From NCBI RefSeq assembly GCF_006494775.1, contig NZ_CP041146.1, positions 3,162,001 to 3,226,000 of the forward strand: 64,000 bases of DNA, written 5' to 3'. The DNA is from Nocardioides humi. GTDB lineage: Bacteria; Actinomycetota; Actinomycetes; Propionibacteriales; Nocardioidaceae. Below are positions 33,208 to 57,123 of this stretch, piece after piece. Position 1 is the first letter of the stretch. Each line of letters starts with the position of its first letter. A program made the position numbers and the translations under genes. A model generated the notes under the pieces. The model made no database searches. It was not told the origin of the DNA and was given only the letters and a program-made list of their open reading frames with translations.

Positions 33208-34404
33208 GCCGACGGCAGCTCCTCCTCGCCTACGCGATCGGGGGGTTCGGGCTGTCGATGAACGCCCAGATCGTCCTGCTGATCCCGCTCCAGGCGCGGG
33301 CCATGGGCGCCGGATTCGACCAGGTCGGCCTGATCGTGGGCTCGGGCTCGCTCGCCGCCGCGTTGTCGTCGGTCGCCCTGGGCTCGCTCGTCGACCGGCT
33401 CGGGCCGCGGACGTGCTACCTCCTGGGCACGGGATCGTGCGCGATCCTCTCCGCGGCCTACATCGTGCCGTCCACGTTCTGGTGGTTCCTGGCCCTGCAG
33501 CCGTTCCTGGCCCTGAGCCGGACACTGGGCTGGGTCGCCTCCCAGGCCTACATCTCCGACGTGGGAGCGCCGTCGGAGCGCGCGACGCACGCGGGCCGCT
33601 TCAGCTTCTGCTCCAACGTCGGCCAGCTGGCGGGCCCGCTGCTCGCTGGCACGGCCGCGGAGACCGTCGGGCTCCGATGGGGACTGGCGGTCCCGGCGGC
33701 GTACGCCCTGGTCTTCTTCCTGCTCGGCCTGCGTCTCCCCAACGGCCATCGGGGCGGGGCTCGGGCCGGGCGGAGGCGGAGCAGGTCGAGCGGGCCAGTG
33801 CGCTGGAGCTGCTCCGCGAGCCCGGCCTCCGGTTCGTCCTCGTCGCGACCTTCGCGCGGATCTGGGTGACGATCGTGTTCACCACGTTCCTCCCGATCCT
33901 GCTGGCCGAGCGAGGTGTGGGCGCCGGCCTGATCGGCGTGGTCATGTCGCTGATGGGCATCGTGGCGACCGCGGCGGCGCCGATGGCGGGCCCGCTGTCG
34001 CGATGGACGGGCTCGGAGGCGCTGGTGGCGACGGCGAGCGTGGGGTGCGGCGCCGTGGCCCTGGTCCTGACGCCGGTCCTGGCGCCGACGTGGCTGGTGT
34101 TCGTGCTGCCGTGCCTGGTGGGCATCGGCGTCGGGCTGAGCCTGCCCTTGTTGATGGGGTCGTCGCCGACTCGACGCCGCCCAGCAGCCTGGGCGTCGCG
34201 ATGGGGCTGCGGAGCCTGGCGAACCAGACGGCGTCGACCTCGGGGCCGGTGATCATCGGACCGATGATCGGCGCCCTCGGCGTGGCGGTGGGGTTCGCCA
34301 CCGCTGGGGTCGGCGCTGGGTGTGTACTCGTGGCGGCGTACGCCGCCTTCGCCCGAGGGCGACACGGTTTCGATGCGCCGGCGGGACAAGAGAAGTCCCG
34401 TTGA
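33183..34404 (+). CDS. MFS transporter (two apparent frameshifts)
   Basis: The GTG at 33183 opens a typical MFS protein: LLAYAIGGFGLSMNAQIVLL, GSLVDRLGPRTCY (motif A-like), then further membrane helices. Two breaks, at 33766-33773 and at the G4 run 34156-34159, each disappear when one base is added. The joined frame has 407 residues and about twelve helices. It overlaps the UbiX gene and probably imports or exports the aromatic substrate or an intermediate. The stop codon lies within operator A. Confidence 0.8.
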
Positions 34405-34425
34405 CATGTAATGCATTAGATGTCA
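34402..34425. promoter_or_regulatory. operator A of the GntR regulon
   Basis: TGACATGTAATG is followed by CATTAGATGTCA, a 24-bp palindrome with one mismatch. It overlaps a TTGACA -35 element (34401-34406) and is followed after 17 bases by CAGGAT as a -10 candidate. It lies 32 bases before the GntR gene, so the regulator should control itself and the operon behind it. Confidence 0.85.
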
Positions 34426-34456
34426 GGATCACAACGACAGGAGAAGGAGGCTGCCG

Positions 34457-35131
34457 ATGACGACTCTCGGATCGTTCTCAGCGACCGACGCCGCCACGGA
34501 GCACATTCGCGAGCGGATCATCAGCGACGAGCTGCCGGCGGGCACCAAGATCAAGATCGACGAGCTGGCCGTCGAGCTCGGCATGAGCCGGACCCCGGTC
34601 CGCGACGCGCTGACCCGGCTGCAGTCCGAAGGCCTGGTCCGGATCGTCTCCCGCGTGGGCGTGTACGTCCGGGAGATCACGCCGGAGGAGGTGCTCGAGG
34701 TCTACACGCTCAAGGAGTCGCTCGAGCCCGTCATGGCCCGGTGGGCGACCGAGCGGTCGTCCGAGGAGGAACGGCAGGCCTTCTACGACAGCGCGGCGGA
34801 CCTGCCCCGGATCGCGGCCCAGGGCGACAGCGCGGCCTATATCGAGCTCGTCGTCAAGCGGCGCCTGCGCATGCTCGAGCTCGCCCGCAGCGAGGTGCTG
34901 TCCGGGATCATGCGCCAGATCGACGAGCGGGTCCGGATCCTGCGCAACCGCAACCTCAGCCAGCTGGAGCGGCTGGAGGCCTCCCACCGCGAGCACCAGG
35001 CGATCGCGGAGGCGGTCCGCGACGGCGACGCGGAGCGGGCCGGCGAGCTCATGGGCGACCACGTCCGCTCGGCGCGCACCTCGCTGATCGCCCTGATCGA
35101 GCACGGAACGTTCGGCAGCACATCCCCATGA
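34457..35131 (+). CDS. GntR-family regulator (FCD type), likely master of the regulon
   Basis: The 224-residue protein has a winged-helix domain at ~8-72 (ATEHIRERIISDELPAGTKI, DELAVELGMSRTPVRDALTR) and an FCD effector domain (ESLEPVMARWATER, SHREHQAIAEAV, GDHVRSAR with metal-ligand-type histidines). AGGAGAAGGAGG precedes the ATG. It is the only GntR gene in this block, and operators of one type lie before it and at three further promoter regions. It is therefore the best candidate for their binding protein. A catabolic intermediate probably releases it. Confidence 0.9.
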   Translation: MTTLGSFSATDAATEHIRERIISDELPAGTKIKIDELAVELGMSRTPVRDALTRLQSEGLVRIVSRVGVYVREITPEEVLEVYTLKESLEPVMARWATERSSEEERQAFYDSAADLPRIAAQGDSAAYIELVVKRRLRMLELARSEVLSGIMRQIDERVRILRNRNLSQLERLEASHREHQAIAEAVRDGDAERAGELMGDHVRSARTSLIALIEHGTFGSTSP

Positions 35132-35143
35132 GAAGGAGGAGCA

Positions 35144-36163
35144 GTGGCGTCATGTGAAGCGGTGGATGTCCACGGACACGCGGTGCCGGAGTCGGTGCTG
35201 GCGCTGATGGAGTCCAGCGGCGACGAGTACGGCGGCATCACGGTCGATCGCAGCGGCGACCGTGCCGTGATCACGCTGCCGGGGGGCAAGCAGCTCCGTC
35301 CCCTTCCGGTCGGCATGAGCGACGGCCCGTCCCGCGACCGCTGGATGACCCGGCAGGGCGTCGGCACCCAGCTGGTCGGCCCGTGGATGGACATCCAGGG
35401 CAACGGCTTCGAGCGGGAGGCCGGCATCGCCTGGTCGCGGGCGCTCAACGACGCCATGGCCGAGGGGCTGCCCACCATCGGCGACCGCGTCCGCCTGCTC
35501 GCCACCGTCTACCCGGCCGACCCGCAGGCGGCCGTCGCCGAGATGCTGCGCACCCGCGCCGACCTGGGCGCGGTGGGCGTCATGATGGCCACCCACTTCC
35601 CCCAGGGCTCGGCGGCCGACGAGGAGATGCTGCCGTTCTGGACCGCCGCCGCCGAGAACCGGATCCCGGTCGTCCTGCACCCGCCGATCGTCGGCCCGGC
35701 CTCGGCCATCGAGGGTGACAAGGACTTCCGCAGCCTCTACGGGCGGACCCTGGAGACCTCGCTGGTCGCGACCCGGATGATCGTCACCGGTCTCTTCGAG
35801 AAGCTGCCCGACCTGCAGATCGTGCTGGTGCACGGTGGCGGCTTCCTGCCCTTCCAGGCGGGCCGCCTGGACCAGCAGGTCGCCGACGACAAGATCGACG
35901 TGGCACTGCCGGCGGGCCGCGCACCGTCGTCGTACCTCAAGCACTTCCTGTACGACACCGCGATGCTGGACCCGGAGGTGGTCGCCTTCCTGGCCAGCCG
36001 CGTGCCGGACCGGGTCCTGGTCGGCACCGACTACCCCTTCACCGCTCGCACCTCCCTGGTGCCCGAGCAGCTGGCCGCGCTGTCCGCCGAGGACCAGGTC
36101 CGGATGAGCGCCGGGACGGCCGGCGCCGTCTTCGACCTGCGCCAGCCGGAGGCAGTGAGGTGA
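35144..36163 (+). CDS. amidohydrolase-2 / ACMSD-like metal-dependent decarboxylase or hydrolase
   Basis: The 339-residue protein has the AVDVHGHAVPE metal site near the N-terminus, a LHPPIVGP core strand with metal His, VLVHGGGFLPFQAGRL, and the final Asp in VLVGTDYPF. This is the pattern of the family of aminocarboxymuconate semialdehyde decarboxylase and related aromatic-acid decarboxylases, which also contains a decarboxylase of dihydroxypicolinate. AGGAGGAG precedes the GTG. Its place directly behind the regulator suggests an early step. It could be a hydrolase instead. Confidence 0.85.
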   Translation: MASCEAVDVHGHAVPESVLALMESSGDEYGGITVDRSGDRAVITLPGGKQLRPLPVGMSDGPSRDRWMTRQGVGTQLVGPWMDIQGNGFEREAGIAWSRALNDAMAEGLPTIGDRVRLLATVYPADPQAAVAEMLRTRADLGAVGVMMATHFPQGSAADEEMLPFWTAAAENRIPVVLHPPIVGPASAIEGDKDFRSLYGRTLETSLVATRMIVTGLFEKLPDLQIVLVHGGGFLPFQAGRLDQQVADDKIDVALPAGRAPSSYLKHFLYDTAMLDPEVVAFLASRVPDRVLVGTDYPFTARTSLVPEQLAALSAEDQVRMSAGTAGAVFDLRQPEAVR

Positions 36164-36657
36164 GGATCCAGTTCGGCGTCAACGGTGCCCCGGTCGCCGT
36201 GGACGCCGAGCCCCGCACCAGCCTGCTCGACGTGCTGCGGCGAGAGGTCGGGGCGACCGGCACCCACACCGGCTGCGAGCACGGGGTCTGCGGCTGCTGC
36301 AACGTCATGGTCGACGGCCGGACCGTCCGGTCCTGCCTGATGCTCGCGGTGCAGGCACGGGGCAGGGAGGTCACCACCGTCGAGGGGCTCGCAGCGCCGG
36401 ACGGCACGCTGACCCCGCTCCAGGAGGCCTTCCAGCGCCACCACGCCATGCAGTGCGGCTACTGCACGTCCGGCATCCTGATCGGCCTCACCGCGTTCCT
36501 GCGGGACAACCCCAAGCCGACCCGCGAGGAGGTCCAGGACAGTCTCTCGGCGAATCTGTGTCGCTGCACCGGCTACCAGCAGATCCTCGACGCGGTCGAC
36601 GACCTGGTCGCCGATCCCCAGGGACTGGAGAGCGAGGAGGAGGCAGCGGATGAGTGA
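36160..36657 (+). CDS. molybdenum hydroxylase small subunit, two [2Fe-2S] clusters
   Basis: The 165-residue protein has the plant-type ferredoxin cluster ligands in GCEHGVCGCCNVMVDG and a final Cys in VRSCLML. The second cluster comes from MQCGYCTSGIL and NLCRCTGYQQI. This is the electron-transfer subunit of the xanthine dehydrogenase / CO dehydrogenase / nicotinate dehydrogenase family. The GTG overlaps the amidohydrolase stop and its end overlaps the large-subunit gene by eight bases, which is usual for these operons. Confidence 0.95.
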   Translation: MRIQFGVNGAPVAVDAEPRTSLLDVLRREVGATGTHTGCEHGVCGCCNVMVDGRTVRSCLMLAVQARGREVTTVEGLAAPDGTLTPLQEAFQRHHAMQCGYCTSGILIGLTAFLRDNPKPTREEVQDSLSANLCRCTGYQQILDAVDDLVADPQGLESEEEAADE

Positions 36658-39061
36658 GCCGGCACCCGAACGCGAGTTCACCTACATCGGCAAGCCCTTC
36701 CCGCTGCGCGAGGACTTCCGCTACGTCCAGGGTCGCGGCCGCTACATCGACGACGTCGATCGGCCGGGCATGACCTATCTGGCGTTGGCCTCCACCTCGG
36801 TCGCCCACGCCCGGCTGATCGACGTCGACGTCAGCGAGGCGCTGGCCACCGAGGGCGTCCTGGCGGTGATCACCGGCCGCGAGCTGGCCGAGGCGATCCT
36901 GCCCGTCCCGCAGAACCTCGACCTTCCCGAGGTGCTCTGGTATCCGCTGGCCGTCGACAAGATCCGCTACTCGGGCGAGCCGGTGGCCGCGATCATCGCG
37001 ACCTCGCGCGCCATCGCCGAGGATGCCGCCGACCTGGTGGTGGCGGACTACGAGGAGCTCGACCCGGTCGTCGATCCCAAGGCGGCGATGGCCCCTGACG
37101 CGGCGGTCCTGCACGAGAAGATCGGCTCGAACGTCGTGTGGCACGACAGCTTCGACTGGGGCAGCGACGTCGACGAGATCTTCGCCTCCGCGGACCACGT
37201 CTTCGAGTTCGACTACCGGTGGAACCGCAACGGCGGCGTGCCGCTGGAGACCATGGGTGTGATCGCCGACTACGACGTCCGCCGTGACGTGCTCGAGGTC
37301 TGGGCGTCGCACCAGTCGCCCCACCTGGACTCTGAGATCGCCAAGGTGCTGCGGCTCAGTGACCGCCAGGTGCTGCTGCACCAGGACATCGAGGTCGGTG
37401 GCTCCTACGGTGCCAAGCGCGGGCGGAAGCAGGTCTTCCTGACCTCCTACGCCTCGCGCACGGTCAAGCGGCCGGTCAAGTACATCGAGGACCGCCGCGA
37501 CAACCTGATCGCCGGGGACGCGCACGGCCCCGACCGCTACTTCAGCGCTCGTTTCGCGGTCACCGAGGCCGGGGTCGTCAAGGGCTTCCAGCTCGACATC
37601 GTCGACGACGTGGGCGCGTACGTCGGCCGCGGACCCCTCCAGATGGGCAAGCCCGTGACCGCGGTCGTCGGCGCCTACACCATCGAGGCCGTGCGCTACA
37701 CCGGGACCGCGGTGACCACGAACAAGACCAACCAGGCGCCCTTCCGCGGCTTCGGCATGGGACCGCACAACTACGTGCTGGATCGCTCCATGGACCGGAT
37801 CGCGCGGGCTCTCGGGATCGACCGGGTGGAGATCCGCCGGCGCAACCTCATCCCCGCCGACGCCTTCCCCTACCGGATCCCGTCAGGCTCGACGTACGAC
37901 TCCGGCAACTTCCAGGGAGCCCTGGAGAAGGCGCTGAGCATGCCCGGGTGCCCGCTGGTGGAGCGCCCCGAGCCCACGCCCGGCACCCTGCTGGGGGTCG
38001 GCCTGTCCACCTGTGTCGAGCCGAGCGGCGGCAACCAGGCGATCTTCTCCTTCCTCAACCCCAAGGCGCCGGGCATGACGCCGGAGACGACCAAGCTCAC
38101 GATCACCAATGACGGCAGCCTGATCGCGACCATCGGGTTCCAGTCCACCGGCCAGAGCCACGAGTCGCTGGTCACCCAGCTGCTGTGCGAGGAGCTCGGC
38201 TTCCCCCGCGAGCGGATCGTGGTCGAGCGCGGCAACTCCCACTCCGGCATGGTCGGTGCGACGCCGATCGGCGACCGGATGACGCTGATGCTCGGCAGCG
38301 CCGTGCACAAGGCCGCGGCGAAGATGCGGGCCAAGCTCCTGCGGATCGCCGCGTTCCGGCTCGACCTCCCCGAGGACCGGCTGACGTACCGGGACATGGC
38401 GGTCACCGCCGACGGCGACGGCCGCCGGGTCACGGTCAAGGAGCTGATCCACGCGGCGTACCACGAGCAGCTCGGCATCCCCGAGGACGAGGAGCCCGGC
38501 CTCACCATCACCGCGATCGCCAAGCTGCCGGGCGGCGGTCTGGGCCTGGACGAGAAACGGCGCCTGCAGCACGGGTTCCCGTCCTACGGCTTCTCGGTCC
38601 ACATCCCCGTGGTCGAGATCGACAAGGAGACCTTCCGGGTCCGGCTGCGCGACTACTACGTCGTGCACGACTGCGGACAGGTCATCAACCCGCTCGTCGT
38701 CGACGGCATGGTCATCGGCGGGATCTCCCAGGCGATCGGCTCGATCCTGCTCGAGCACTTCGACTACTCCGAGGACGGCCAGCCGCTGTCCACCTCCTTC
38801 ATGGACTACATGCTGCCGACGGCGGACGTGATGCCCACCCGCATCCGGCTCGCCGAGCAGCGCACGCCGTCGCCCCTGCATCCGTACGGCGCCAAGGGGA
38901 CGGGCGAGGGCGGCTACCTCGGCGGCCCCGCCGCGATCGCGTCGGCGATCGACGATGCCCTGGCCCAGCTCGGGGTCGTCGTCGGCACCACGCCGATCAC
39001 CCCGGCCCGGATCTTCGCGGCCGTGCAGGAGGCCGGTGCGCTCGAGGAGGCGATCGCATGA
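36650..39061 (+). CDS. molybdenum hydroxylase large (molybdopterin-binding) subunit
   Basis: The 803-residue protein shows the family features in order: an N-terminal domain (REDFRYVQGRGRYIDDV), the glycine segment GGSYGAKRG, the cofactor-pocket NQAPFRGFGMGPHNYVLDR, STGQSHESL, and the active-site glutamate in GAKGTGEGGYLGGPAA. It hydroxylates an aromatic or aldehyde carbon with oxygen from water, using Mo-cytosine dinucleotide. The usual active-site Cys segment of CO dehydrogenase is not seen, so a ring-hydroxylating role is more likely. The specific substrate is inferred from the operon. Confidence 0.95.
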   Translation: MSEPAPEREFTYIGKPFPLREDFRYVQGRGRYIDDVDRPGMTYLALASTSVAHARLIDVDVSEALATEGVLAVITGRELAEAILPVPQNLDLPEVLWYPLAVDKIRYSGEPVAAIIATSRAIAEDAADLVVADYEELDPVVDPKAAMAPDAAVLHEKIGSNVVWHDSFDWGSDVDEIFASADHVFEFDYRWNRNGGVPLETMGVIADYDVRRDVLEVWASHQSPHLDSEIAKVLRLSDRQVLLHQDIEVGGSYGAKRGRKQVFLTSYASRTVKRPVKYIEDRRDNLIAGDAHGPDRYFSARFAVTEAGVVKGFQLDIVDDVGAYVGRGPLQMGKPVTAVVGAYTIEAVRYTGTAVTTNKTNQAPFRGFGMGPHNYVLDRSMDRIARALGIDRVEIRRRNLIPADAFPYRIPSGSTYDSGNFQGALEKALSMPGCPLVERPEPTPGTLLGVGLSTCVEPSGGNQAIFSFLNPKAPGMTPETTKLTITNDGSLIATIGFQSTGQSHESLVTQLLCEELGFPRERIVVERGNSHSGMVGATPIGDRMTLMLGSAVHKAAAKMRAKLLRIAAFRLDLPEDRLTYRDMAVTADGDGRRVTVKELIHAAYHEQLGIPEDEEPGLTITAIAKLPGGGLGLDEKRRLQHGFPSYGFSVHIPVVEIDKETFRVRLRDYYVVHDCGQVINPLVVDGMVIGGISQAIGSILLEHFDYSEDGQPLSTSFMDYMLPTADVMPTRIRLAEQRTPSPLHPYGAKGTGEGGYLGGPAAIASAIDDALAQLGVVVGTTPITPARIFAAVQEAGALEEAIA

Positions 39062-39939
39062 AGCCCGCCGCCTTCGACATCCGCACCCCGGCGTCGCTGG
39101 ACGAGGCGCTCGCGGATCTCGCCGAGCTCGCCGAGCGCGGCGACGACGTCCGGCCGCTCGCGGGCGGGCAGAGCCTGATCCCCCTGCTGAACTTCCGGAT
39201 GTCCCAGCCCGAGGTCCTGGTCGACCTGGGCGACCTGGACGAGCTCCGCTTCGTCCGGCGCGAGCCCGACGGCGGCCTGCGGATCGGCGCGATGACCACC
39301 ATGTCGTACCTCCTGGACTCCCCCCTGGTCGTGGAGTCGCACCCGATCCTGCGCGACACCCTGAGGTACGTCGCCCACGAGCCGATCCGCAACCGGGGGA
39401 CGATCGGCGGCAGCCTCTCGCACATGGACCCGGCGGCCGAGCTCCCCGCGCTCGCGCTCCTGCTCGAGGTCGAGATCGTGCTGAGCTCGGTGCGCGGTCG
39501 CCGTACCGTGCCGGCGGCCGACTTCCTCCAGGGCGCCTACATGACGTCCATCGAGGAGGGGGAGCTGCTCACCGAGGTCCGCATTCCCCCGCTCCCCGGC
39601 GGCGCTCGGACAGGCGTGGTCGAGGTCGCCCAGCGGACCGGGGACTTCGCTCTCGCCGGCGCCGCCTGCGTGCTGCGAGCCGACGTCGAGAACCGCGTGC
39701 AGGAGCTGCGCACGGTCGTGTTCGGCTCGAGCACCTCGCCCACCCGCCTGCCCGACGTCGACGCGCACGCCGTCGGCCGGGTCGCCGACGCCGACCTGGC
39801 GCTGGAGGTGGCCGGCGGGTACGCCGCGGGCATCCAGCCGCTGGACGACCGGCACGGACCGGCCGACTTCCGCCGGCACCTGACACGCGTCATGGTCACC
39901 CGCGCCATCCGCGACGCAGCAGGACTGAGGCTGCGATGA
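39058..39939 (+). CDS. molybdenum hydroxylase medium (FAD-binding) subunit
   Basis: The 293-residue protein contains the FAD-binding segments PLAGGQSLIPLLNFR and RNRGTIGGSLSHMDPAAELP of the CoxM/XDH family, and the C-terminal CO-dehydrogenase flavoprotein domain. The ATG overlaps the large-subunit stop (ATGA). It takes electrons from the iron-sulfur subunit to an acceptor. With the two preceding genes it forms a complete hydroxylase in S-L-M order. Confidence 0.95.
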   Translation: MKPAAFDIRTPASLDEALADLAELAERGDDVRPLAGGQSLIPLLNFRMSQPEVLVDLGDLDELRFVRREPDGGLRIGAMTTMSYLLDSPLVVESHPILRDTLRYVAHEPIRNRGTIGGSLSHMDPAAELPALALLLEVEIVLSSVRGRRTVPAADFLQGAYMTSIEEGELLTEVRIPPLPGGARTGVVEVAQRTGDFALAGAACVLRADVENRVQELRTVVFGSSTSPTRLPDVDAHAVGRVADADLALEVAGGYAAGIQPLDDRHGPADFRRHLTRVMVTRAIRDAAGLRLR

Positions 39940-39962
39940 CGACCGAGAACGAGGAGAAAGCA

Positions 39963-40361
39963 ATGACCAGCATCCACGACGCCACCGACGGCGCCGACAT
40001 CCGCCGCGCGATCATGGGCGGTGACTGGGTGGTGGCGGCCGAGGCCGGCAACGGCGACGCCATGGACCACTTCACCAAGATCAGCATCGACCACGTGTGG
40101 CGCAACGTCTGGCCGCGCCCGGGCCTGGAGCTGTCGTACCGCAGCGCCGTGACGATCGCCGCGCTGGCGTCGCTGGAGGCCGAGGGAGAGCTGGTCGCCC
40201 ACGTCAGGGGCGCGCTGCGCAACGGCCTGCTCGAACCCACCCAGATCCGCGAGATCCTGCTGCACCTGATCCCCTACATCGGGTTCCCGCGCGCCCGGCA
40301 CGCGGTCGAGGCGGTCAACGACATCCTCGCCGAGGCCGCGGCCGCGGAGGACGCCTCGTGA
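39963..40361 (+). CDS. carboxymuconolactone decarboxylase / AhpD-fold protein
   Basis: This 132-residue helical protein resembles the CMD family (YRSAVTIAALASLEAEGEL, HVRGALRNGLLEPTQIREIL, HLIPYIGFPRARHAVEAV). The peroxidase CxxC pair of AhpD is absent, which favours a decarboxylase- or lactonase-type role. ATG 39963 has GAGGAG six bases upstream; an ATG at 39936 overlaps the preceding stop and would add nine residues. The gene overlaps the aldehyde dehydrogenase by four bases. Confidence 0.85.
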   Translation: MTSIHDATDGADIRRAIMGGDWVVAAEAGNGDAMDHFTKISIDHVWRNVWPRPGLELSYRSAVTIAALASLEAEGELVAHVRGALRNGLLEPTQIREILLHLIPYIGFPRARHAVEAVNDILAEAAAAEDAS

Positions 40362-45581: not shown

Positions 45582-45587
45582 TCGCCG

Positions 45588-45740
45588 ATGCCGAGGATCT
45601 TCTGGGCCACCTGCCCGCAGTGCGACGAGCCGTTCCTGGTCTCCTGGGAGCTGCGGCACGCGGGCGTCGAGCTCATCTGCCCCTTCTGCAAGGACACGTT
45701 CCTGCCCGACGACGCCAAGGAACTGGACGAGCGCCTGTGA
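45588..45740 (+). CDS. 50-residue zinc-ribbon protein, likely small subunit of the decarboxylase
   Basis: This short gene encodes a protein starting MPRIFWATCPQCDEPF, with a second pair in ICPFCKDTF, so it has two CxxC motifs about 20 residues apart, and an acidic C-terminus. It begins six bases after the UbiD stop and its stop overlaps the next GTG (GTGA), so it is translated in the operon. The three-part layout UbiX, UbiD, small CxxC protein resembles BsdB-BsdC-BsdD hydroxyarylic acid decarboxylases, where the D subunit is a small Cys-rich protein. Zinc binding is inferred. Confidence 0.8.
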   Translation: MPRIFWATCPQCDEPFLVSWELRHAGVELICPFCKDTFLPDDAKELDERL

Positions 45741-48405: not shown

Positions 48406-48429
48406 TGACATGTGATACGTTACACGTCA
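48406..48429. promoter_or_regulatory. operator B of the GntR regulon
   Basis: The site TGACATGTGATA followed by CGTTACACGTCA matches the perfect operator at 20 of 24 positions. It lies between the divergent binding-protein gene (start 48358) and the ThDP-enzyme gene (start 48461), so one site can control both. Confidence 0.75.
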
Positions 48430-48460: not shown

Positions 48461-50127
48461 GTGACGAGCACATCAGCTGACCCGGCCGCGGCAGTCGAGT
48501 CCGCGCCAGCGCTGCAGGGCTACCTGGCGATCCCGGAGCTGATCCGGCGGAGCGGCACCGGCGTCGTCTTCTCGATGCTCGGCGAGACGAACGTGCCCTG
48601 GATCGCGGCCGGCGCGGACAGCGGCGCCTTCCGCTTCGTCCGCACCCGCCACGAGGCCACGTCGGTGAGCGCCGCCGCCGGCTTCAGCCGGACGACCGGA
48701 GCGGTCGGCATCGCCTCGGTCACCCGCGGGCCCGGCTTCGCGAACGCCGTCAACGCACTGAAGGCGGCGACGCACGACCACGTTCCGCTGCTGCTGATCG
48801 TCGCCGAGTCACCGGCGACCAGGATCAAGATCAGCCCCTTCTACCAGAACCTCGACCAGCGCGGGATCACCGCGGCACTGGGTGCGGGCTTCCACCACGT
48901 CGCGAACGGGAGCCAGCTCGAGGAGACGTTCTGGGCGGCGTACCGCGGCGCGCGCTGGAACGGCCTGCCGCAGGTCCTCAGCGTCGCCGACGGCGTCATC
49001 GACGACCCGGTCCGGCTGGGGCCGACACCGGAGCTGGAGCGGGAGGCCGAGCTCCCCGACCCCGAGAGCGTCACGGCGATCGTGGACGTCCTGGAGGGTG
49101 CCCGCCGTCCCCTCGTGCTGGCCGGGCAGGGCGCCGTCCACGCCGACTGCCGTGCCGAGCTCGAACAGCTCGCCGACCTGATCGGAGCCCGGGTGGCGTC
49201 GACGCTCAACGTCAACCGCTACTTCTCGGGCCACCCGCACAATCTCGGTGTGTGCGGCCACTCCTCGCCCACGCTCGTCGCCGACCTGATCAGCCAGAGT
49301 GACGTCGTCGTGGCGGTCGGCGCCTCGCTGAACCCGTACACGACCGGGAAGGAGTCGCTGTTCACGAGCGCGACGATCGTCCAGGTCGAGATCGACGTCG
49401 ACCAGCCCTTCCACGCCTCGCGCGCCGAGCTGGGGCTGCTCTCCGACGCGCGGGAGGGAGTCCGCGCGCTGATCGCCGAGTGGCGACGGCGCGGCCTGTC
49501 CCCGCGCCCGGTCGAGGGTACGACGCCCAGCCGGGCGCAGATCGCGGCATCGGTCGCGGACGTCGACCTCGGCCACGACGCGGACCGCGGCATCGACCTG
49601 CGGCGCGCCTTCGCCGTCCTGGACGCCCGGCTGCCGGCCGATCGGATCGTGATCTCGGACTCGGGCAGGTGGTCGGGCACGCTGCCGACCTTCCTCGACG
49701 CACGGGACGGCCGCAGCTGGGTGATCAGCCGGGGGTACGGGTCGATCGGGCTGGGCCTCGGCAACGCCATCGGCGCGGCGGCGGGCAATCCCGATCGCCC
49801 CGTGGTGCTGTTCTGCGGCGACGGCGGCTTCATGATGTCGTCCCACGACGTCGACGCGATCCGGCTCAACGACCTGGATCTCACGGTCTTCATCGTCAAC
49901 GACGAGGCCTACGGCGCAGAGGTGCCCTACCTGACGCCGTACGGACTGCCCGCCGACGTCGCGCGCCAGAACCTGCCGGACATGGTGGCCTACGCGCAGG
50001 CATTCGGCGCCCGAGGGGTGGTCGTCCGCACCCTCGACGAGCTGGAGGCGCTCGAGCTGTCCCCCGCGGCCTGAGCATCGTCGACATCAGGATCGACCCG
50101 CTGGTCAACGGCCGAGCAGCGCTGTAG
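48461..50127 (+). CDS. ThDP-dependent enzyme, acetolactate synthase / benzoylformate decarboxylase-like (apparent frameshift at C-terminus)
   Basis: The protein has the three-domain ThDP layout. The N-terminal part has the catalytic Glu in VRTRHEATSV and the loop SVTRGPGFANAV. The C-terminal part has the cofactor motif GDGGFMMSSHDVDAIRLN ending in VFIVNDEAYG. At the C5 run 50061-50065 one extra C gives LSPRGLSIVDIRIDPLVNG and a total of 555 residues. It probably decarboxylates a 2-oxo acid or joins it to an aldehyde. GGAGGCGGAG precedes the GTG start. It is the first gene of operon B. Confidence 0.88.
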
Positions 50128-50161: not shown

Positions 50162-50671
50162 ATGGCCGCCCCGGCACCCAGGAGCACGGCAGACCTCTGC
50201 GACGAGTTCGGCGACCGGCTGGAGTCGTGCAGCCTGCCGCTGCGGCAGTACGGCGGTGAGCGGGCCTTCGGCGGCCCGATCGTCACCTTCCGATCGCCCG
50301 AGGACAACCTGATCCTCAAGCAGATCATCACCGAGCCCGGGGAGGGCCGGGTCATCGTCGTCGACGTCCACGGCTCGACCCGGGTGGCGATGATCGGCGA
50401 CAGCATGGCCGAGACGGCCGCCGCCAACGGCTGGTCCGGCTTCGTCATCAACGGCGCCGTCCGCGACGTCGGCCGGCTGGCCGAGCTGCCGATCGGCGTC
50501 AAGGCCCTGGGCAGCAATCCGCGGCGCAGCGTCAAGTCCGGCAACGGCGAGCGCGACGTGACGGTCTCCTTCGGCGGCGCGGTCTTCCGCCCGGGAGCCG
50601 TGCTCGCGAGTGACGACGACGGCATCGTCGTGCTGCCCGCCGCCGACGTCAGCGCAATCCCTAATAGCTGA
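50162..50671 (+). CDS. RraA-like / HMG-aldolase-type protein
   Basis: The 169-residue protein has the RraA family centre (GDSMAETAAANGWSGFVING, AVRDVGRLAELPIGVKALG) with the conserved Arg-Asp pair RD. Members with this pair are 4-hydroxy-4-methyl-2-oxoglutarate / oxaloacetate-releasing aldolases or decarboxylases; others regulate RNase E. Its place behind a ThDP enzyme in a catabolic operon favours the aldolase/decarboxylase role. It is 34 bases behind the restored end of the ThDP gene. Confidence 0.87.
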   Translation: MAAPAPRSTADLCDEFGDRLESCSLPLRQYGGERAFGGPIVTFRSPEDNLILKQIITEPGEGRVIVVDVHGSTRVAMIGDSMAETAAANGWSGFVINGAVRDVGRLAELPIGVKALGSNPRRSVKSGNGERDVTVSFGGAVFRPGAVLASDDDGIVVLPAADVSAIPNS

Positions 50672-50800: not shown

Positions 50801-52144
50801 ATGGCATCGGACAACAAGATCATCCTCACCGCCGCGTTGATGCACGGCCTCGGCATGGAGTACGGCGCGTGGCGGGTGAGGTCGGGGCCGGCGTCGGACT
50901 ACGTGTCCCCGCGGCTGTACGCCGAGATGGCGCAGGCGGCCGAGCGCGGCAAGCTGCACGTCCTCTTCCTGGCCGAGCAGATGACGAACCGCGACACGGG
51001 CACCGAGCGCCCGTGCGGGTCGCTGGACACCACCACCGTCCTCGGGTTCATGGCCGCCGCCAGCCAGCGGGTGGGCCTGGTGGGCACCGGGTCCACCACC
51101 TACAACCACCCCTACGACCTCGCGCGCCGCTTCGCGACGCTCGACCACCTCGCCGGCGGCAGGGTCGGCTGGAACGCCGTCACCACCGCCAACCCGGCGA
51201 CCGCGGAGATGTACGGCACCGACCCCCACCCGCCGGCCGGGGAGCGCTACGCCCGGGCGGACGAGTTCCTCGAGGTGGTCGCGGCACTGTGGGAGAGCTG
51301 GGAGCCGGACGCCCTCGTCGGCGACAAGGAGCGCGCGATCTTCGCCGACCCGGCGAAGGTCCACGAGATCAACCACGACGGCGCCCACTTCACGGTCCGG
51401 GGCCCGCTGCCCTTCCCCCGGTCGCGACAGGGACGGCCGGTGATCTTCCACGCGGGATCCTCACCGGCCGGCCGGGACCAGGCGGCGCGCGTCGCGGACG
51501 TCGTCTTCACCGCCCAGCACACGCTCGCCGCCGCCTGCGAGTTCCGCGCCGACATCCGCGCCCGCGCGGCGGCGTACGGACGCGACCCCGACCAGGTGAA
51601 GGTGCTGCCGGGCATGTCGGTGATCCTCGGCGCCACGGAGGAGGAGGCGCAGGCGAAGAAGGCCGCGGCGCACGAGGCGCTCACCCTCGACCAGCGGCTG
51701 CGCCTGATGTGGAAGCGCACCGGGGTCGGGGTGGACGTGCTGCGCGCGCACCTGGACCTTCCCTTCCCCGTCGACCTGCTGCCGCCCGACGAGACCTTCC
51801 AGTCGGGCACCGGCTGGCGTCGCAGCGTCGTCGACCTCGCGGTCACGGAGAACCTGACCGTCCGCGAGCTCCTCTCCCGCGCGCCCGGGCCGCACCACCA
51901 CCTCGTGGGCACGGCGGCCACCATCGCGGACGCGATGGAGGAGCGCATCGAGGCCGGTGCCGCCGACGGCTTCACGCTGATGGTCGACATCCTGCCCGAC
52001 GGGCTCCACGACATCGCCGACCTGCTGACGCCCGAGCTCCAGCGGCGAGGTCTCTTCCACGACGACTACGAGGGCGAGACGCTGCGCGACTCGCTCGGGA
52101 TCGGCGCCGCGGCGCCGATCCCCTCGGCCCTGGCGGCGGTGTGA
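50801..52144 (+). CDS. FMN-dependent monooxygenase, NtaA/SnaA/DszA family
   Basis: The 447-residue protein belongs to the large luciferase-like group (MASDNKIILTAALMHGLGM, FLAEQMTNRDTGTERP, GSTTYNHPYDLARRFATLDH, GRVGWNAVTTANPATAEMYG, FHAGSSPAGRDQAARVADVV). These enzymes use reduced FMN from a separate reductase; relatives cleave the ring of pyridine or uracil, or oxidise aminopolycarboxylates and sulfones. The next gene, one base away, is the likely reductase. It may catalyse ring opening or N-dealkylation in this pathway. GAGAGGG-type sequence precedes the ATG. Confidence 0.92.
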   Translation: MASDNKIILTAALMHGLGMEYGAWRVRSGPASDYVSPRLYAEMAQAAERGKLHVLFLAEQMTNRDTGTERPCGSLDTTTVLGFMAAASQRVGLVGTGSTTYNHPYDLARRFATLDHLAGGRVGWNAVTTANPATAEMYGTDPHPPAGERYARADEFLEVVAALWESWEPDALVGDKERAIFADPAKVHEINHDGAHFTVRGPLPFPRSRQGRPVIFHAGSSPAGRDQAARVADVVFTAQHTLAAACEFRADIRARAAAYGRDPDQVKVLPGMSVILGATEEEAQAKKAAAHEALTLDQRLRLMWKRTGVGVDVLRAHLDLPFPVDLLPPDETFQSGTGWRRSVVDLAVTENLTVRELLSRAPGPHHHLVGTAATIADAMEERIEAGAADGFTLMVDILPDGLHDIADLLTPELQRRGLFHDDYEGETLRDSLGIGAAAPIPSALAAV

Positions 52145-52145
52145 G

Positions 52146-52733
52146 ATGAGCATCGAGACGAACGGCGCCAACGTCCTGGGCATCGGCGGCACGCTGAGCC
52201 CCCGCTCGACCTCCGAGCTGGCCCTGCGGCACTGCCTCGCGGCCGCCGAGGAGCTCGGTGCGCGGACCAGGATGATCACGGCCGCGCAGCTGGAGATGCC
52301 GATGTACCAGTGGGGCGTGGCGGACGGCTGCGCGGCCGCGCAGGAGCTGCTCGATGCGGTGCGCTGGGCCGACCACGTAGTCATCTCGTCGCCCGGCTAC
52401 CACGGGGGGATGTCGGGACTGCTGAAGAACGCCCTCGACTACCTCCAGGAGCTGGCGGAGGAGAGCTCGCCCTACCTGGACGGCAAGGCGGTCGGCTGCA
52501 TCGTGACCGCCGCCGGCTGGCAGGCCGGTGCGACCGTGCTCGGCTCGCTCCGCGACACCATCCACGCACTGCGTGGGTGGGCGACGCCGCTCGGCGTGGT
52601 GGTCAACTCCTCCGTCTCCCCGTTCGCTCCCGACGGCTCCGTCATCGACCCCGGGCTGGACGCGAAGCTCCGGCTGCTGGCCGAGCAGGTCGCCGGGTTC
52701 CCGGTCGCGGCCCGCCGTAGCATCGCGGTGTGA
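52146..52733 (+). CDS. NAD(P)H-dependent FMN reductase
   Basis: The 195-residue flavodoxin-fold protein has the FMN phosphate loop GIGGTLSPRSTSELAL and ISSPGYHGGMSGLLKNALDYL. It starts one base after the stop of the monooxygenase, so it is the natural supplier of reduced FMN for that enzyme. It belongs to the SsuE/MsuE-like group rather than the Fre type. Confidence 0.92.
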   Translation: MSIETNGANVLGIGGTLSPRSTSELALRHCLAAAEELGARTRMITAAQLEMPMYQWGVADGCAAAQELLDAVRWADHVVISSPGYHGGMSGLLKNALDYLQELAEESSPYLDGKAVGCIVTAAGWQAGATVLGSLRDTIHALRGWATPLGVVVNSSVSPFAPDGSVIDPGLDAKLRLLAEQVAGFPVAARRSIAV

Positions 52734-52785: not shown

Positions 52786-53691
52786 GTGGACCTCCGGCAG
52801 CTGCGCATCCTCACCGCCGTGGCGGAGGTCGGGTCCTTCACCGCGGCCGCTGAGCGGCTCTACCTCACCCAGTCGGCCGTCTCCCAGCAGATGGCGCGCC
52901 TCGAGCGGGAGGTCGGCCGTCCCCTGTTCGCCCGGGGGCCGCGCGGTGTCGCGCTGACCGAGGTGGGCCGCGACGTTGCCTCGGGCGCCGCCGAGGTGCT
53001 GGCGAAGATGGACGAGTTCGAGCTCGCGGTGGGCGCCCTCAGCGACGCCCGGTCCCGGCTGCGGATCGGCGCCTTCTCCAGCGCCGGGGTCGAGCTCCTG
53101 CCGCGCACCGTGCGCAGGTTCCGTGCCGACCACCCGGACGTGGACGTGGCGATCCGCACGATGAACCCGGCGGATCCCCTCGAGCCGCTGCTGTCGGGCT
53201 CCCTGGACGTGCTGCTCGTGTTCGACTACAGCGTGGACCCGAGGGACTTCGGGACGTCCGTGGACCGCCTCCACCTCCTCGACGACCCCTTCCACGTGCT
53301 GCTCCCGCTGGAGCACCGCCTGGCCGGTGCCGACGAGCTGGACCTGATCGAGCTGGCCGACGCCGAATGGATCTTCCAGCGCCACTCCCCGCCGCACCAG
53401 GAGATCTACGAACGTGCCTGCCACCAGGCGGGCTTCACGCCGGACGTGGTCTTCTACGCCGACGACTTCCGGACCCTGCAGGGCCTGGTCGCGGTCGGCA
53501 TGGGCGTCAGCATCGCACCCCTGGGCGCCTCGTCCCCGGGCCGGAGCGATGTGGCGTCGGTGGCGGTCCGGACGCCGGACCTGGTCCGGCGGATCTCGGT
53601 GCTGACGCTGCCCAGCAGCCAGCGCGACGGCGCGGTGACCGGCTTCGTGGAGGCGCTCAGGAGCACCGCGGCGGGCGCTCCGGGGGCGTGA
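52786..53691 (+). CDS. LysR-family transcriptional regulator
   Basis: The 301-residue protein has an N-terminal winged helix (RQLRILTAVAEVGSFTAAAE, LTQSAVSQQMARLEREVG) and a substrate-binding domain of the type II periplasmic fold (RIGAFSSAGVELLPRTVRRF). The GTG at 52786 is the start that places the helix-turn-helix at residue 2, as usual. It lies 52 bases behind the FMN reductase in the same direction and is probably part of operon B. It gives the block a second layer of control, perhaps over the monooxygenase pair. Confidence 0.92.
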   Translation: MDLRQLRILTAVAEVGSFTAAAERLYLTQSAVSQQMARLEREVGRPLFARGPRGVALTEVGRDVASGAAEVLAKMDEFELAVGALSDARSRLRIGAFSSAGVELLPRTVRRFRADHPDVDVAIRTMNPADPLEPLLSGSLDVLLVFDYSVDPRDFGTSVDRLHLLDDPFHVLLPLEHRLAGADELDLIELADAEWIFQRHSPPHQEIYERACHQAGFTPDVVFYADDFRTLQGLVAVGMGVSIAPLGASSPGRSDVASVAVRTPDLVRRISVLTLPSSQRDGAVTGFVEALRSTAAGAPGA

Positions 53692-53737: not shown

Positions 53738-54442
53738 TCACCCGCGGCCGGTGAGCAGCTGCTCCACGCGGGCGACGTCGACCACGTCGGCGTACTTCTG
53801 GTGCATCTCGAAGGTGTTGACGGTGTGGGAGAACATCGACCGGTCGAAGACCGCGTCCTCGACCAGGAGGACCCGGTAGTCGTAGGCGGCCGCGTCGACC
53901 ACGGTCGCCCTGATGCAGCCCGAGGTGGTGCTGCCCGCGACCAGCACCGTGTCGATCCGGTTGCGGTTGAGGTAGGTCACCAGCGGGGTGCCGAAGAAGG
54001 CGCTGGGACGGGACTTCTCCAGCACGAACTCATCGTCCTTCGGCTGCAGCTCGGGAGGGAAGCCCCGGGAGTGGAGCAGTGCCGAGGTCGCCGGGGCCGC
54101 CGACGCCTTGACCGAGCCGCCGCAGAAGCGCTTGGCCATCAGGTTGCCCTTCACGAAGACCACCGGTACGCCGGCCTCCCGGGCGACGTCGACCAGCCGG
54201 ACGATGGCGGGCATGCGCGCCCAGCCGTGCGGCGCGCAGGACATGAAGTCGCCCGGCTGCGCCTGCTCCCCCGGACGCGGGCCGAGGAACGACTCGACGA
54301 CGTCGACGAGGATGAGGCAGGGGCGCTCGCCCATCTCCCGTGCCCCGCCGAAGCCGGCCTCCGCGTAGACCGCGAGGTCCTCGGGCGGCACGGTCCGGCG
54401 CCAGCGCTCCTCGATCGGGATGGGGGTGGGCTGGGTGTCCAT
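53738..54442 (-). CDS. isochorismatase-family cysteine hydrolase, copy 1
   Basis: The 234-residue protein has the catalytic triad segments of the family: Asp in LILVDVVESFLG, Lys in VLEKSRPSAFFGTPL, and Cys in AGSTTSGCIRATVVDA. Relatives include maleamate amidohydrolase (NicF/PicF) and N-carbamoylsarcosine amidase. It is divergent from a binding-protein gene and shares operator C with it. The protein at 55612 is a paralogue with the same motifs. An amidase role for a linear amide formed after ring opening is a reasonable inference. Confidence 0.9.
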   Translation of the reverse strand: MDTQPTPIPIEERWRRTVPPEDLAVYAEAGFGGAREMGERPCLILVDVVESFLGPRPGEQAQPGDFMSCAPHGWARMPAIVRLVDVAREAGVPVVFVKGNLMAKRFCGGSVKASAAPATSALLHSRGFPPELQPKDDEFVLEKSRPSAFFGTPLVTYLNRNRIDTVLVAGSTTSGCIRATVVDAAAYDYRVLLVEDAVFDRSMFSHTVNTFEMHQKYADVVDVARVEQLLTGRG

Positions 54443-54471
54443 GAGCGGCCTCCGGGTGTCCGATCGGTTCT

Positions 54472-54495
54472 AGACATGTAATGCATTACATGTCA
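54472..54495. promoter_or_regulatory. operator C of the GntR regulon
   Basis: A perfect 22-bp palindrome, GACATGTAATG and its reverse complement at 54473-54494, lies between the divergent amidase (start 54442) and the second binding-protein gene (start 54551). Confidence 0.88.
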
Positions 54496-54550
54496 CAGTA
54501 CCGGAGTGACTCCGGTCACGGGAGCCCCCGAGCGTGAGGTGACATTCGGA

Positions 54551-55615
54551 ATGAGCGGTGGACGCGTCGTCGGCGCGGTGACGTCCGTGGCAGCAGTGCT
54601 CGTGCTGGCCGGCTGTGGGGGCGGCTCGGACGAGTCGGCGCGGGTCGACCAGGCTGCGCGCTACGCAGGCGACGATCGGCAGGGCTACCTGGAGGAGTGC
54701 GCGAGGGAGGAGGGCTCGCTCTCGGTCTACACGGCGCAGAACACCGATCTGTGGCAGCCGCTGAAGGAGGGCTTCCAGAGGAAGTACCCCGGCATCAAGG
54801 TCGAGACGACCCGGCGCACCTCGGCCGAGACCGCCGAGACGTTGTCGAAGGAGGCCCGGGCCGGGGTGGACAAGGCCGACGTCGTCGACGTCAAGGTCGA
54901 GGTGGCCGAGAGCCTGCTCGAGCTGCTCGCGCCGTTCAGCTCGCCGGAGCTCGCGGCGTACCCGGAGGGCGCGATCGGCCCGGACGACAGGTACGTCATC
55001 AGCGACCAGATCCCCTACGGCATCGTCTACAACACCGACAAGGTGTCCGATCCTCCGAAGACCTCCGAGGACCTGCTGAGACCGGAGTTCAAGGGCCACA
55101 TCGCGATGTCCACGACCCTGCTCGGCACGCAGTGGGTCGGCTGGATGGAGAGCAGGTACGGCGAGGAGTTCCTCGAGCGCCTCGGCGAGCAGGACGTGCG
55201 GACCACCGACGCCAACGGCAACGCGATCATCGCCCAGGTCGCGGCCGGCGAGGCGCTGGTCGCGCCGGCCGTCGACCTCGCGGGCGTCGAGGCGCTGAAG
55301 AGCGGCGGCAAGGTCGCGCCCATCGCATGGCTCCCGATCGACTCCCACTGGACGCAGGGCGCGCTGTCGATGGCGGCGAAGGCGCCGCACCCGTGCGCGG
55401 CGATGTTGTACATCGACTACGAGCTCTCGGCCGAGGGCCAGACCATCAACCCCCTCTACCTCTCCGCCCGGGACGACGTGCCCGCACCGGAGGCGGTGCA
55501 GGGTGAGAACGAGCCGGTGGACATCTGGGAGATCGTCGGCGAGCACTCCGCCCAGGCCTACCAGGACGCCTCGCGCCGTTGGACCGAGCTCGTCGACAGG
55601 TACATCGTCAGGTGA
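54551..55615 (+). CDS. ABC transporter substrate-binding lipoprotein, paralogue 2
   Basis: The ATG at 54551 starts a 354-residue protein with signal peptide and lipobox (VLAGC); a GTG at 54506 would only add a non-signal extension. The mature protein (SLSVYTAQNTDLWQPLKEGF, QIPYGIVYNTDKV, LLGTQWVGWMESRYG, NPLYLSARDDV) is very similar to that at 57174 and more distantly to that at 47303. The C-run at NPLYL is intact here (five C), which exposes the lost base in the third copy. It is followed by an amidase and an alpha/beta hydrolase gene. Confidence 0.93.
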   Translation: MSGGRVVGAVTSVAAVLVLAGCGGGSDESARVDQAARYAGDDRQGYLEECAREEGSLSVYTAQNTDLWQPLKEGFQRKYPGIKVETTRRTSAETAETLSKEARAGVDKADVVDVKVEVAESLLELLAPFSSPELAAYPEGAIGPDDRYVISDQIPYGIVYNTDKVSDPPKTSEDLLRPEFKGHIAMSTTLLGTQWVGWMESRYGEEFLERLGEQDVRTTDANGNAIIAQVAAGEALVAPAVDLAGVEALKSGGKVAPIAWLPIDSHWTQGALSMAAKAPHPCAAMLYIDYELSAEGQTINPLYLSARDDVPAPEAVQGENEPVDIWEIVGEHSAQAYQDASRRWTELVDRYIVR

Positions 55616-56297
55616 GCACCGACGCCGCGCGGCGGTTCCTGAGTGAGCGCGATGCCCGGATCCTCGAGCTCGCCGGGTTCGGCGGGAGGGTCGGGCTGGG
55701 CGCGCGACCGGCCCTGCTGCTGGTCGACGTCAACGACTCCTTCTGCGGACCCGAGGAGCTGCCCGTCGAGGAGTCGGTCCGGCGCTGGCGGAGCAGCTGC
55801 GGGACCGCTGCCTGGGACGCCGTCCGCGCGATGGTGCCGCTCGTCGGCCTCGCGCGCTCGCGCGGCGTACCCGTCATCTACACGACCGGGCGGGTGGAGC
55901 CCGGAGGGCGCGGCCGCTGGAACGACAAGGTCAGCCCCGAGGTCGCCGGACGCCGACCGCCCCATCCCTTCCGCATCAACACGCTGGTGGCCCCCGGGAG
56001 GACGAGATCGTCCTGGAGAAGCCCAAGCCGAGCGCGTTCTTCGCCACGACGCTGCTGGCGCGGCTGATCGAGCGCGGCGTGGACAGCGTCGTGATCTGCG
56101 GGGGGACCACCAGCGGCTGCGTCCGGGCGACGGCCGTGGACGCGTTCTCCTACGACCTCCGGACAGTGGTCGTCGCGGACGCCACGTTCGACCGCCTCGA
56201 GCTCAGCCACGCCGCGTCGCTGCTCGACCTGTCCGCGAAGTACGCAGACGTCGCCACCTCCGCGGAGGTCGCGACGATGCTCGACGAGATGGAGTGA
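55612..56297 (+). CDS. isochorismatase-family cysteine hydrolase, copy 2 (apparent frameshift)
   Basis: The GTG at 55612 overlaps the binding-protein stop. The catalytic Asp is in LLLVDVNDSFCG. After VAP the frame breaks at 55991-55998 (CCCCCGGG); one added base gives GEDEIVLEKPKPSAFFATTL with the catalytic Lys, then GGTTSGCVRATAVDA with the catalytic Cys. The joined protein has 228 residues and is a paralogue of the minus-strand amidase at 53738. It is probably intact in the organism. A maleamate-amidase-like role is possible. Confidence 0.87.
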
Positions 56298-56303
56298 GAT
56301 GGG

Positions 56304-57092
56304 GTGACGTGGACGATGGCCGACGAGCGGCTCCCGGAGCTGGCATCGTGGGTGAGTGGCGACGCGAGGGATCCGGTGATGGTCTTCGTCCATCCCAATC
56401 CGCTGGACTCGTGGTCGTGGCTCTACCAGGTCTTCGAGTTCGCCGCGAGCCACCGATGCGTGGCGGTCGACCTGCCGGGCTACGGAGCCACGCCGCCGAT
56501 CCCGCCGGAGTGGACGATCGAGGACCTGGCCGCGGCGGTGTGGCGCGCGGTGGACCGCGAGACCCGGGGCGGGCCGGCGATCCTCGTCGGCTGCTCGATC
56601 GGCAGCCATCTCGTCGAGATCATGTACCACCAGCGTCCCGAGGCGGTGCGCGCGCTCGTGGTGAGCGGCACCGGCTGGGATCCGCACCGCCACTACATCG
56701 CGCGCCGGATCCGCGAGTACGCCGAGCTGGGCCGGGCCGCGCGCCGGCCCCATGCCCTCGACGTCCTCTCGCGGGACTTCGGGTCCAGCGATCTCGGCCG
56801 GTTCTTCGTGGAGACGACCTGCCGTCGTGGCGAGCACGCCGATCCGGCGGCGATCAGCCGGCTCTTCGAGATCAGGGCCGAGGTGGAGCCGGAGTCGTTC
56901 ATCGCCGGGATCCAGGCGCCGGCCCTGGTCGTCTCCGGCACCGAGGACGCGGCGCACGCGGGTGCCGCGCCCCTGGCCGAGCGGCTTCCCCGCGGGCAGA
57001 TGGTGGCGCTGCAGGGAGCGGGTCACGCCTGCTACCTGGAGCAGCCGGTCGCGTTCAACGCGGCCATGCGTTCGTTTCTGGAAACCTTGTAG
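56304..57092 (+). CDS. alpha/beta hydrolase
   Basis: The 262-residue protein has the oxyanion region VFVHPNPLDSWSW, the nucleophile elbow GCSIGSH, an acid in VSGTEDAAHAG and the final His in GAGHACYLEQP. It resembles the small hydrolases that deformylate N-formylmaleamate or cleave C-C bonds in aromatic catabolism. The GTG at 56304 has GGAG upstream; an ATG at 56316 is an alternative. It forms one unit with the binding protein and the amidase and ends eight bases before operator D. Confidence 0.88.
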   Translation: MTWTMADERLPELASWVSGDARDPVMVFVHPNPLDSWSWLYQVFEFAASHRCVAVDLPGYGATPPIPPEWTIEDLAAAVWRAVDRETRGGPAILVGCSIGSHLVEIMYHQRPEAVRALVVSGTGWDPHRHYIARRIREYAELGRAARRPHALDVLSRDFGSSDLGRFFVETTCRRGEHADPAAISRLFEIRAEVEPESFIAGIQAPALVVSGTEDAAHAGAAPLAERLPRGQMVALQGAGHACYLEQPVAFNAAMRSFLETL

Positions 57093-57099
57093 ACATCGT

Positions 57100-57123
57100 T
57101 GACATGTAATGCATTACATGTCA
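57100..57123. promoter_or_regulatory. operator D of the GntR regulon
   Basis: TGACATGTAATG is followed by its exact reverse complement, a perfect 24-bp palindrome. The left half contains TTGACA (57099-57104), a consensus -35 element, so the bound regulator would block RNA polymerase. It lies 50 bases before the third binding-protein gene. Confidence 0.9.

What the first reader, a model, noticed from the sequence alone, without database searches (positions are those of the whole stretch)
34402..57123. One 24-bp palindrome marks a five-unit GntR regulon
Nearly identical palindromes (half-site TGACATGTAATG) occur at 34402-34425, 48406-48429, 54472-54495 and 57100-57123, and in no other place that I noticed in the window. 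They precede the GntR gene and its 13-kb operon, two divergent promoter pairs, and the transporter operon. Several overlap TTGACA-like -35 elements. This ties uptake, hydroxylation, decarboxylation, ring opening and amide hydrolysis genes into one regulon with the regulator encoded inside it. The pattern is direct; the assignment of the GntR protein at 34457 as the binder is inference.
Basis: partly seen in the sequence, partly recalled or inferred. Interest (0 to 1): 0.78.

Follow-up and report, generated by a model that had tools for sequence, protein, structure and literature searches.

The report
Repressor site for a catabolic island
A GC-rich bacterium, probably an actinobacterium, carries four near-identical 24-letter DNA palindromes, found nowhere else in its genome, that mark the promoters of one catabolic gene island and most likely let a single regulator encoded in the island switch all of it on and off.

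Summary
Four near-identical 24-bp palindromes lie at 34402, 48406, 54472 and 57100. No other such sites were found in the 6.22-Mb genome, even at 3 mismatches, nor for the 12-bp half-site at 1 mismatch. They head six inferred units, not five. Sites 54472 and 57100, perhaps 48406, probably spread with duplicated solute-binding-protein genes, so they are not four independent inventions.

The GntR protein (winged helix plus FCD domain) is the likeliest binder, by inference. For: a site lies 31 bp before its gene, and a matrix from the four sites, run on 30 kb of a distant relative (G682) with a 47-50% identical GntR, hits best 26 bp upstream of its tcuA homologue (24 of 5000 permuted matrices score as high). 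Against: the palindrome lacks the usual FadR-subfamily core (GT-N2/3-AC); its core is GT-N8-AC between TGACAT/ATGTCA arms. The arms resemble part of the motif of HypR, a known FCD repressor.

Best reading: an autoregulated, single-island catabolic regulon for an unidentified, probably N-heterocyclic substrate. It is a new member of a known kind with an atypical operator. Binding, effector and substrate are untested.

The parts
34402..34425 (.). Operator site A, 31 bp before the GntR start codon; TTGACA overlaps its left end
48406..48429 (.). Operator site B, between divergent genes 47303-48358 (-) and 48461-50074 (+); the most diverged copy
54472..54495 (.). Operator site C, between divergent genes 53738-54442 (-) and 54551-55615 (+)
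57100..57123 (.). Operator site D, perfect palindrome, 50 bp before the third solute-binding-protein gene
34457..35131 (+). GntR-family regulator (PF00392 winged helix + PF07729 FCD), likely binder of the four sites
35144..36163 (+). Amidohydrolase-2 protein, nearest solved relatives ACMSD-type decarboxylases
36160..39939 (+). Three-subunit molybdenum hydroxylase: Fe-S 36160-36657, Mo subunit 36650-39061, FAD subunit 39058-39939
38955..40361 (+). ORF whose C-terminal part is a carboxymuconolactone-decarboxylase-like protein (true start not determined, near 39.98 kb)
40097..41866 (+). Aldehyde dehydrogenase (true start probably near 40358)
41973..42629 (+). Metallo-beta-lactamase-fold hydrolase
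42658..44088 (+). TcuA-like FAD-dependent dehydrogenase (above the NCBIfam NF006130 cut-off)
44157..45581 (+). UbiD-family decarboxylase
45551..47176 (+). FAD_binding_2 oxidoreductase, last gene of the 12.7-kb unit
47303..48358 (-). Solute-binding protein 1
48461..50074 (+). Thiamine-diphosphate enzyme (2-oxoacid decarboxylase/acetolactate-synthase type)
50162..50671 (+). RraA-like protein
50801..52144 (+). NtaA/DmoA-family FMN monooxygenase, candidate ring-opening enzyme
52146..52733 (+). FMN reductase, presumed partner of the monooxygenase
52786..53691 (+). LysR-family regulator, rival binder
53738..54442 (-). Isochorismatase-family hydrolase, candidate amide hydrolase
54551..55615 (+). Solute-binding protein 2 (83% identical to protein 3 over 302 aa)
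57174..58247 (+). Solute-binding protein 3, followed by permease, ATPase and dehydrogenase genes

Best explanation
The four palindromes are operators of the FCD-type GntR protein at 34457-35131, which acts as an autoregulated repressor of one catabolic island. In the absence of inducer it sits on the palindrome, which fills the stretch just downstream of a TTGACA-like element, so RNA polymerase is shut out. At the two divergent regions one symmetric site would block both promoters. When the substrate or an intermediate (probably a carboxylate) enters through one of the solute-binding proteins and binds the FCD pocket, the protein lets go, and uptake, Mo-dependent hydroxylation, decarboxylation, flavin-dependent ring opening and amide hydrolysis genes come on together. 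Shown here: the sites, their exclusivity, their positions, the gene families and the motif match in one relative. Inferred: binding by GntR, repression rather than activation, the inducer, the operons and the pathway.
Against: No canonical FadR-subfamily core GT-N2/3-AC in the palindrome; GT and AC are 8 apart (consensus from PMC4494728 passages). The relative's GntR is only 47-50% identical and its own gene has only a weak upstream hit (5.6 bits, L015:18647). Among genomes sampled in family (294), order (391), class (394) and phylum (396), overlapping sets, only G682 besides the own genome held a homologue at the thresholds used, so the comparative test rests on one case, noticed by eye before the test was set up. 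Sites C and D, and perhaps B, may be co-duplicates. No sigma-70 promoter scored in 47100-57300. A LysR gene lies in the same island.
Confidence: 0.72

Rival explanations
1. The palindrome is the operator of another regulator: the LysR protein at 52786-53691 or an unlinked factor. GntR would then only be one of its targets.
For: The LysR gene lies within the unit headed by site B. The palindrome lacks the classical FadR-subfamily core.
Against: The even-centred 24-bp dyad cannot hold a symmetric 13-bp T-N11-A LysR box (box recalled, not from a call). None of the four sites lies directly before the LysR gene. The G682 match is near a GntR homologue, and no other regulator was recognised among the 9 ORFs of L015/L016 that I scanned (the other ORFs of those 30 kb were not scanned).
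Confidence: 0.15
2. GntR binds the sites but works as an activator or dual regulator rather than as a plain repressor.
For: The sites abut -35-like elements and no strong -10 is seen. For FadR the exact site position decides between repression and activation (HypR paper passage).
Against: The site lies 29-55 bp before start codons in all six units, inside the presumed promoter rather than upstream of it. FCD repressors Atu1419 and HypR use such positions in their own promoters to repress.
Confidence: 0.09
3. The copies are mere by-products of duplicating a solute-binding-protein gene with its promoter, with no regulatory meaning.
For: Binding proteins 2 and 3 are 83% identical and the DNA beside their sites is alike; protein 1 is 52-54% identical to both.
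Against: Site A stands before gntR with no binding-protein gene. The palindrome has at most one mismatch between its halves at three of four sites. A similar element lies before the tcuA homologue in G682.
Confidence: 0.04

Closest known systems
HypR of Streptomyces coelicolor (FCD GntR repressor of hydroxyproline genes; PMC6608401, abstract and passages seen)
   Same: FCD-type GntR, autorepressor, motif containing ATGTCAC like the outer arm here, controls catabolic enzymes
   Different: HypR's 14-nt motif has unclear symmetry, its bound sites are spread over the chromosome, and it keeps the three metal-binding histidines
Atu1419 of Agrobacterium fabrum (VanR group; PMC7797058, passages seen)
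   Same: FCD regulator, autorepression, palindromes overlapping promoter elements of a catabolic cluster
   Different: 10-bp ATGTATACAT operator with GT-N2-AC core, Zn site present, tetramer shown; here a 24-bp palindrome with GT-N8-AC
PmiR of Pseudomonas aeruginosa (PDB 7xp0/7xp1)
   Different: Reported to sense 2-methylisocitrate (only a title in a reference list seen); effector here unknown
SdhR, HutC subfamily (operator quoted in PMC4494728, passage seen)
   Same: 26-bp GntR-family palindrome with additional internal symmetry
   Different: HutC, not FCD, subfamily; different sequence

Membership tests
GntR family, FadR/FCD subfamily (protein) | N-terminal GntR winged helix | tested here: met
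   PF00392 E 6.1e-18, residues 11-71
GntR family, FadR/FCD subfamily (protein) | C-terminal all-helical FCD domain | tested here: met
   PF07729 E 4.5e-20, residues 81-204; model with seven helices in residues 76-215, one of only 7 residues; structural matches to FCD proteins
GntR family, FadR/FCD subfamily (operator, typical but with known exceptions) | Palindrome with GT-N2/3-AC core | tested here: not met
   Site core is GTAATGCATTAC, GT-N8-AC; consensus and exceptions from PMC4494728 passages
Metal-binding FCD regulators (TM0439, Atu1419, HypR) | Three metal-ligand histidines with an Asp/Asn | tested here: not met
   In the phmmer alignment TM0439 His134 falls on Arg136 and Asp130 on Val132 (my reading of the alignment); Arg135, Arg136, His180 and His202 are invariant in 26 of 26 aligned sequences (TM0439 numbering)
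Autoregulated FCD repressor | Operator in own promoter | tested here: met
   Site A 31 bp before gntR; repression itself not tested
Autoregulated FCD repressor | Protein binds the site and releases it with an effector | not testable with these tools
   Needs EMSA or footprinting
YtrA subfamily | Short C-terminal domain of about 50 residues with two helices | tested here: not met
   Helical C-terminal domain spanning residues 76-215 instead; definition from PMC4494728 passage

The most novel reading that the evidence does not exclude
An FCD-type GntR lineage that has lost the canonical metal site reads an unusually wide operator (GT-N8-AC inside TGACAT...ATGTCA, 24 bp), perhaps as two dimers or a splayed dimer, and with it runs a new N-heterocyclic-carboxylate pathway as a single-island regulon.
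Probability: 0.33. Interest if true: 0.52.

Novelty: new member of a known kind. Interest (0 to 1): 0.42.

Why it matters
The sites define, from sequence alone, which genes belong to one otherwise unassigned catabolic pathway, and give an operator that could be tested in one gel-shift experiment. If GntR binds it, the operator rule for the FCD subfamily needs widening.

Tried and rejected
Searches for the palindrome elsewhere: an exact pattern with 20 of 24 bases fixed, run on the genome-contig collection (84,980 species by its description), gave 8 stretches, all in Roseovarius azorensis. I read three: L006 and L010 are built of repeated ATGACATGTCAT units and L005 of a variant of them, so I set them aside as unrelated; the other five were not read. 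No match in viral contigs and no confirmed relative of GntR there. On plasmids GntR has only two weak relatives at E 1e-20 (32-34%), and the monooxygenase only relatives under 60% (451 records).

Island transfer: a tRNA-Leu lies at 31219-31303 just left of the island, but no copy of its last 14 or more bases was found to the right, up to 30 kb beyond the window. So tRNA integration was not supported.

Other motif readings: a LysR T-N11-A box was rejected on symmetry. The 12-bp pattern GTRAYRYRTYAC was designed after I had seen the G682 sequence and after symmetrising the sites, so it is partly circular. It gives 4 places in the own genome (3 of them sites B, C and D) and 7 in G682 (one at tcuA), but also 3, 10, 8 and 8 in four genus mates of G682, which have no GntR homologue at E 1e-35. 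The reversed control pattern gives 1, 2, 4, 7, 2 and 2, so the pattern is not specific. In the 30-kb locus it gave 1 exact place (0.05 expected) and 4 at one mismatch or fewer (2.0 expected, up to 6 in 60 shuffles). The whole-site matrix test is the one I rely on. It too was set up after I had noticed the tcuA site, but its matrix uses window sites only.

Substrate: paper searches for isonicotinate/citrazinate, pyridine, dipicolinate and UbiD clusters and for FCD operators showed no title in the listings that describes this regulon. The library lacks most subscription journals.

Full report
OBSERVATION. The four palindromes are at the stated coordinates. The perfect copy is 57100-57123; the other three differ between their halves by 1, 4 and 1 positions of 12 (34402, 48406, 54472). 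In the 6,220,618-base single-contig genome the 24-mer with up to 3 mismatches is found only at 34402, 54472 and 57100. A degenerate form finds only the four. The half-site with up to one mismatch occurs only inside sites A, C and D, and the arms alone, TGACAT-N12-ATGTCA, occur with up to one mismatch only at the four. Under a simple 72%-GC background about 8e-6 such 24-mers would be expected at up to 3 mismatches. The window-only scan is much weaker evidence (11 half-site matches at 3 mismatches against 7.6 in shuffles).

UNITS. Site A precedes gntR and a run of same-strand genes to 47176. Site B lies between a solute-binding-protein gene (47303-48358, minus) and a plus-strand run: thiamine-diphosphate enzyme, RraA-like protein, NtaA/DmoA monooxygenase, FMN reductase, LysR. 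Site C lies between an isochorismatase-family hydrolase (minus) and a second binding-protein gene. Site D precedes the third binding-protein gene with permease, ATPase and dehydrogenase genes. That makes six units, not five. Gaps from palindrome to start codon are 31, 47, 31, 29, 55 and 50 bp. Operon structure and some start codons are inferred from strand, spacing and reading frame only.

INDEPENDENCE. Binding proteins 2 and 3 are 83% identical over 302 residues and the DNA beside sites C and D is alike; protein 1 is 52-54% identical to both. Sites B, C and D may therefore have travelled with gene duplication. Site A has no such partner.

PROMOTER GEOMETRY. TTGACA overlaps the left end of the palindrome exactly in front of gntR and of the third binding protein; the other four units have TTGACG, CTGACA, GTGACA and TAGACA at that place. 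Hexamers 16-18 bp further on match TATAAT at no more than 3 of 6 positions, except one with 4 of 6 before the isochorismatase gene. The consensus scanner reports no sigma-70 promoter in 47100-57300, with 0.2 expected by chance; site A was outside that scan. A repressor bound there would be well placed to exclude RNA polymerase, but the promoters are not demonstrated.

OPERATOR TYPE. PMC4494728 (passages) gives the FadR-subfamily sites as having GT and AC 2-3 bases apart, with exceptions. The palindrome here has no such core. It reads TGACAT-GTAATGCATTAC-ATGTCA with GT and AC 8 apart. HypR, an FCD repressor of Streptomyces, binds CTNTGC(A/C)ATGTCAC (PMC6608401, abstract and passages), whose ATGTCAC equals the right arm plus the next base at sites C and D. 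An FCD protein reading such arms is therefore not unprecedented.

COMPARATIVE TEST. The protein search lists 27 homologues of the GntR besides its own entry at E 1e-40 (47-76% identity). Their sources (jgi, lgn, ena, ncbi) and mostly short contigs suggest metagenomes, and their DNA could not be fetched. In sampled genomes (family 294, order 391, class 394, phylum 396, overlapping sets, E limits 1e-40 or 1e-35) only G682 has one besides the own genome (47%). Its four genus mates lack one, and its own GntR as query finds none in the 21 other genomes searched in its family, those mates included. In G682 a 63% identical tcuA homologue lies on the opposite strand, its 3' end about 0.9 kb and its start about 2.3 kb beyond the gntR gene. 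A matrix built from the four window sites and their reverse complements scores highest, over 30 kb of that locus, at L016:1801-1824 (TAACCGGTAATATATCACGCGTCA), 26 bp from the in-frame ATG that I take as the tcuA start. The score of 19.0 bits is not reached in 40 Markov shuffles (best 16.1). It is reached by 24 of 5000 column-permuted matrices over the locus, and by 2 of 5000 in that intergenic stretch. Weaker hits lie before the transporter genes that precede gntR there (L015:14406-14443, 10.2, 9.6 and 5.5 bits) and near tcuA (L016:1874, 6.0 bits). Against it: the second-best hit (13.5 bits, L015:8497) lies far from these genes and was not examined; AT-rich intergenic DNA favours such hits, which the permutation controls in part (236 of 5000 permuted matrices also have their best hit in the tcuA intergenic stretch); and the hit before the G682 gntR itself is weak (5.6 bits, L015:18647).

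PATHWAY. Mo hydroxylase, UbiD, an ACMSD-like decarboxylase, an NtaA/DmoA-type FMN monooxygenase with FMN reductase and an isochorismatase-family hydrolase suggest hydroxylation, decarboxylation, ring opening and deamidation of a nitrogen heterocycle (the chemistry is inference). The nearest solved relatives of the hydrolase are a putative isochorismatase (3ot4) and N-carbamoylsarcosine amidohydrolase. A TcuA-like dehydrogenase passes its NCBIfam cut-off (563.7 against 369 bits). A flavoprotein-domain (UbiX-like) gene and an MFS gene lie just left of site A. I cannot name the substrate.

VERDICT. A real, island-specific set of operators; GntR the likeliest binder at about 0.7; ordinary in kind, unusual in operator shape.

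Noticed in passing
48379-48392, 54506-54519, 57134-57147: A second dyad, GTGAC-N5-TCAC (CRP/GlxR-like GTGA-N6-TCAC, resemblance recalled), lies 10-13 bp downstream of the palindrome in all three binding-protein promoters and, as an exact match, nowhere else in the window (5 matches at 3 places; mean 0.8, 0 of 100 shuffles reach 5). It may add catabolite control or reflect co-duplication.
   Followed up: partly
33180-34404, 55616-56294, 57980-58247, 58263-60015: Reading frames appear broken in an MFS transporter, a second isochorismatase-family gene (Pfam hit for its second piece only), the C-terminus of binding protein 3 and its permease. Sequencing indels or decay; not distinguished.
   Followed up: partly
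32525-32548: Weak, one-mismatch match to the operator core (GTAATGTATCAG, 32531-32542), 14 bp before the UbiX-like gene at 32557; matrix score only 7.4 bits.
   Followed up: partly
31219-31303: tRNA-Leu beside the FHA/PP2C/RodA/PBP/protein-kinase gene cluster may mark the left edge of the island; no repeat of its 3' end found to the right.
   Followed up: partly
6270-6293: A perfect, unrelated 24-bp palindrome CTTTAGTCAATCGATTGACTAAAG between ORFs 4716-6215 (-) and 6571-7200 (+).
   Followed up: no
L005, L006, L010: Roseovarius azorensis carries ATGACATGTCAT-type palindromes or variants at scattered places (8 stretches found, 3 read).
   Followed up: no
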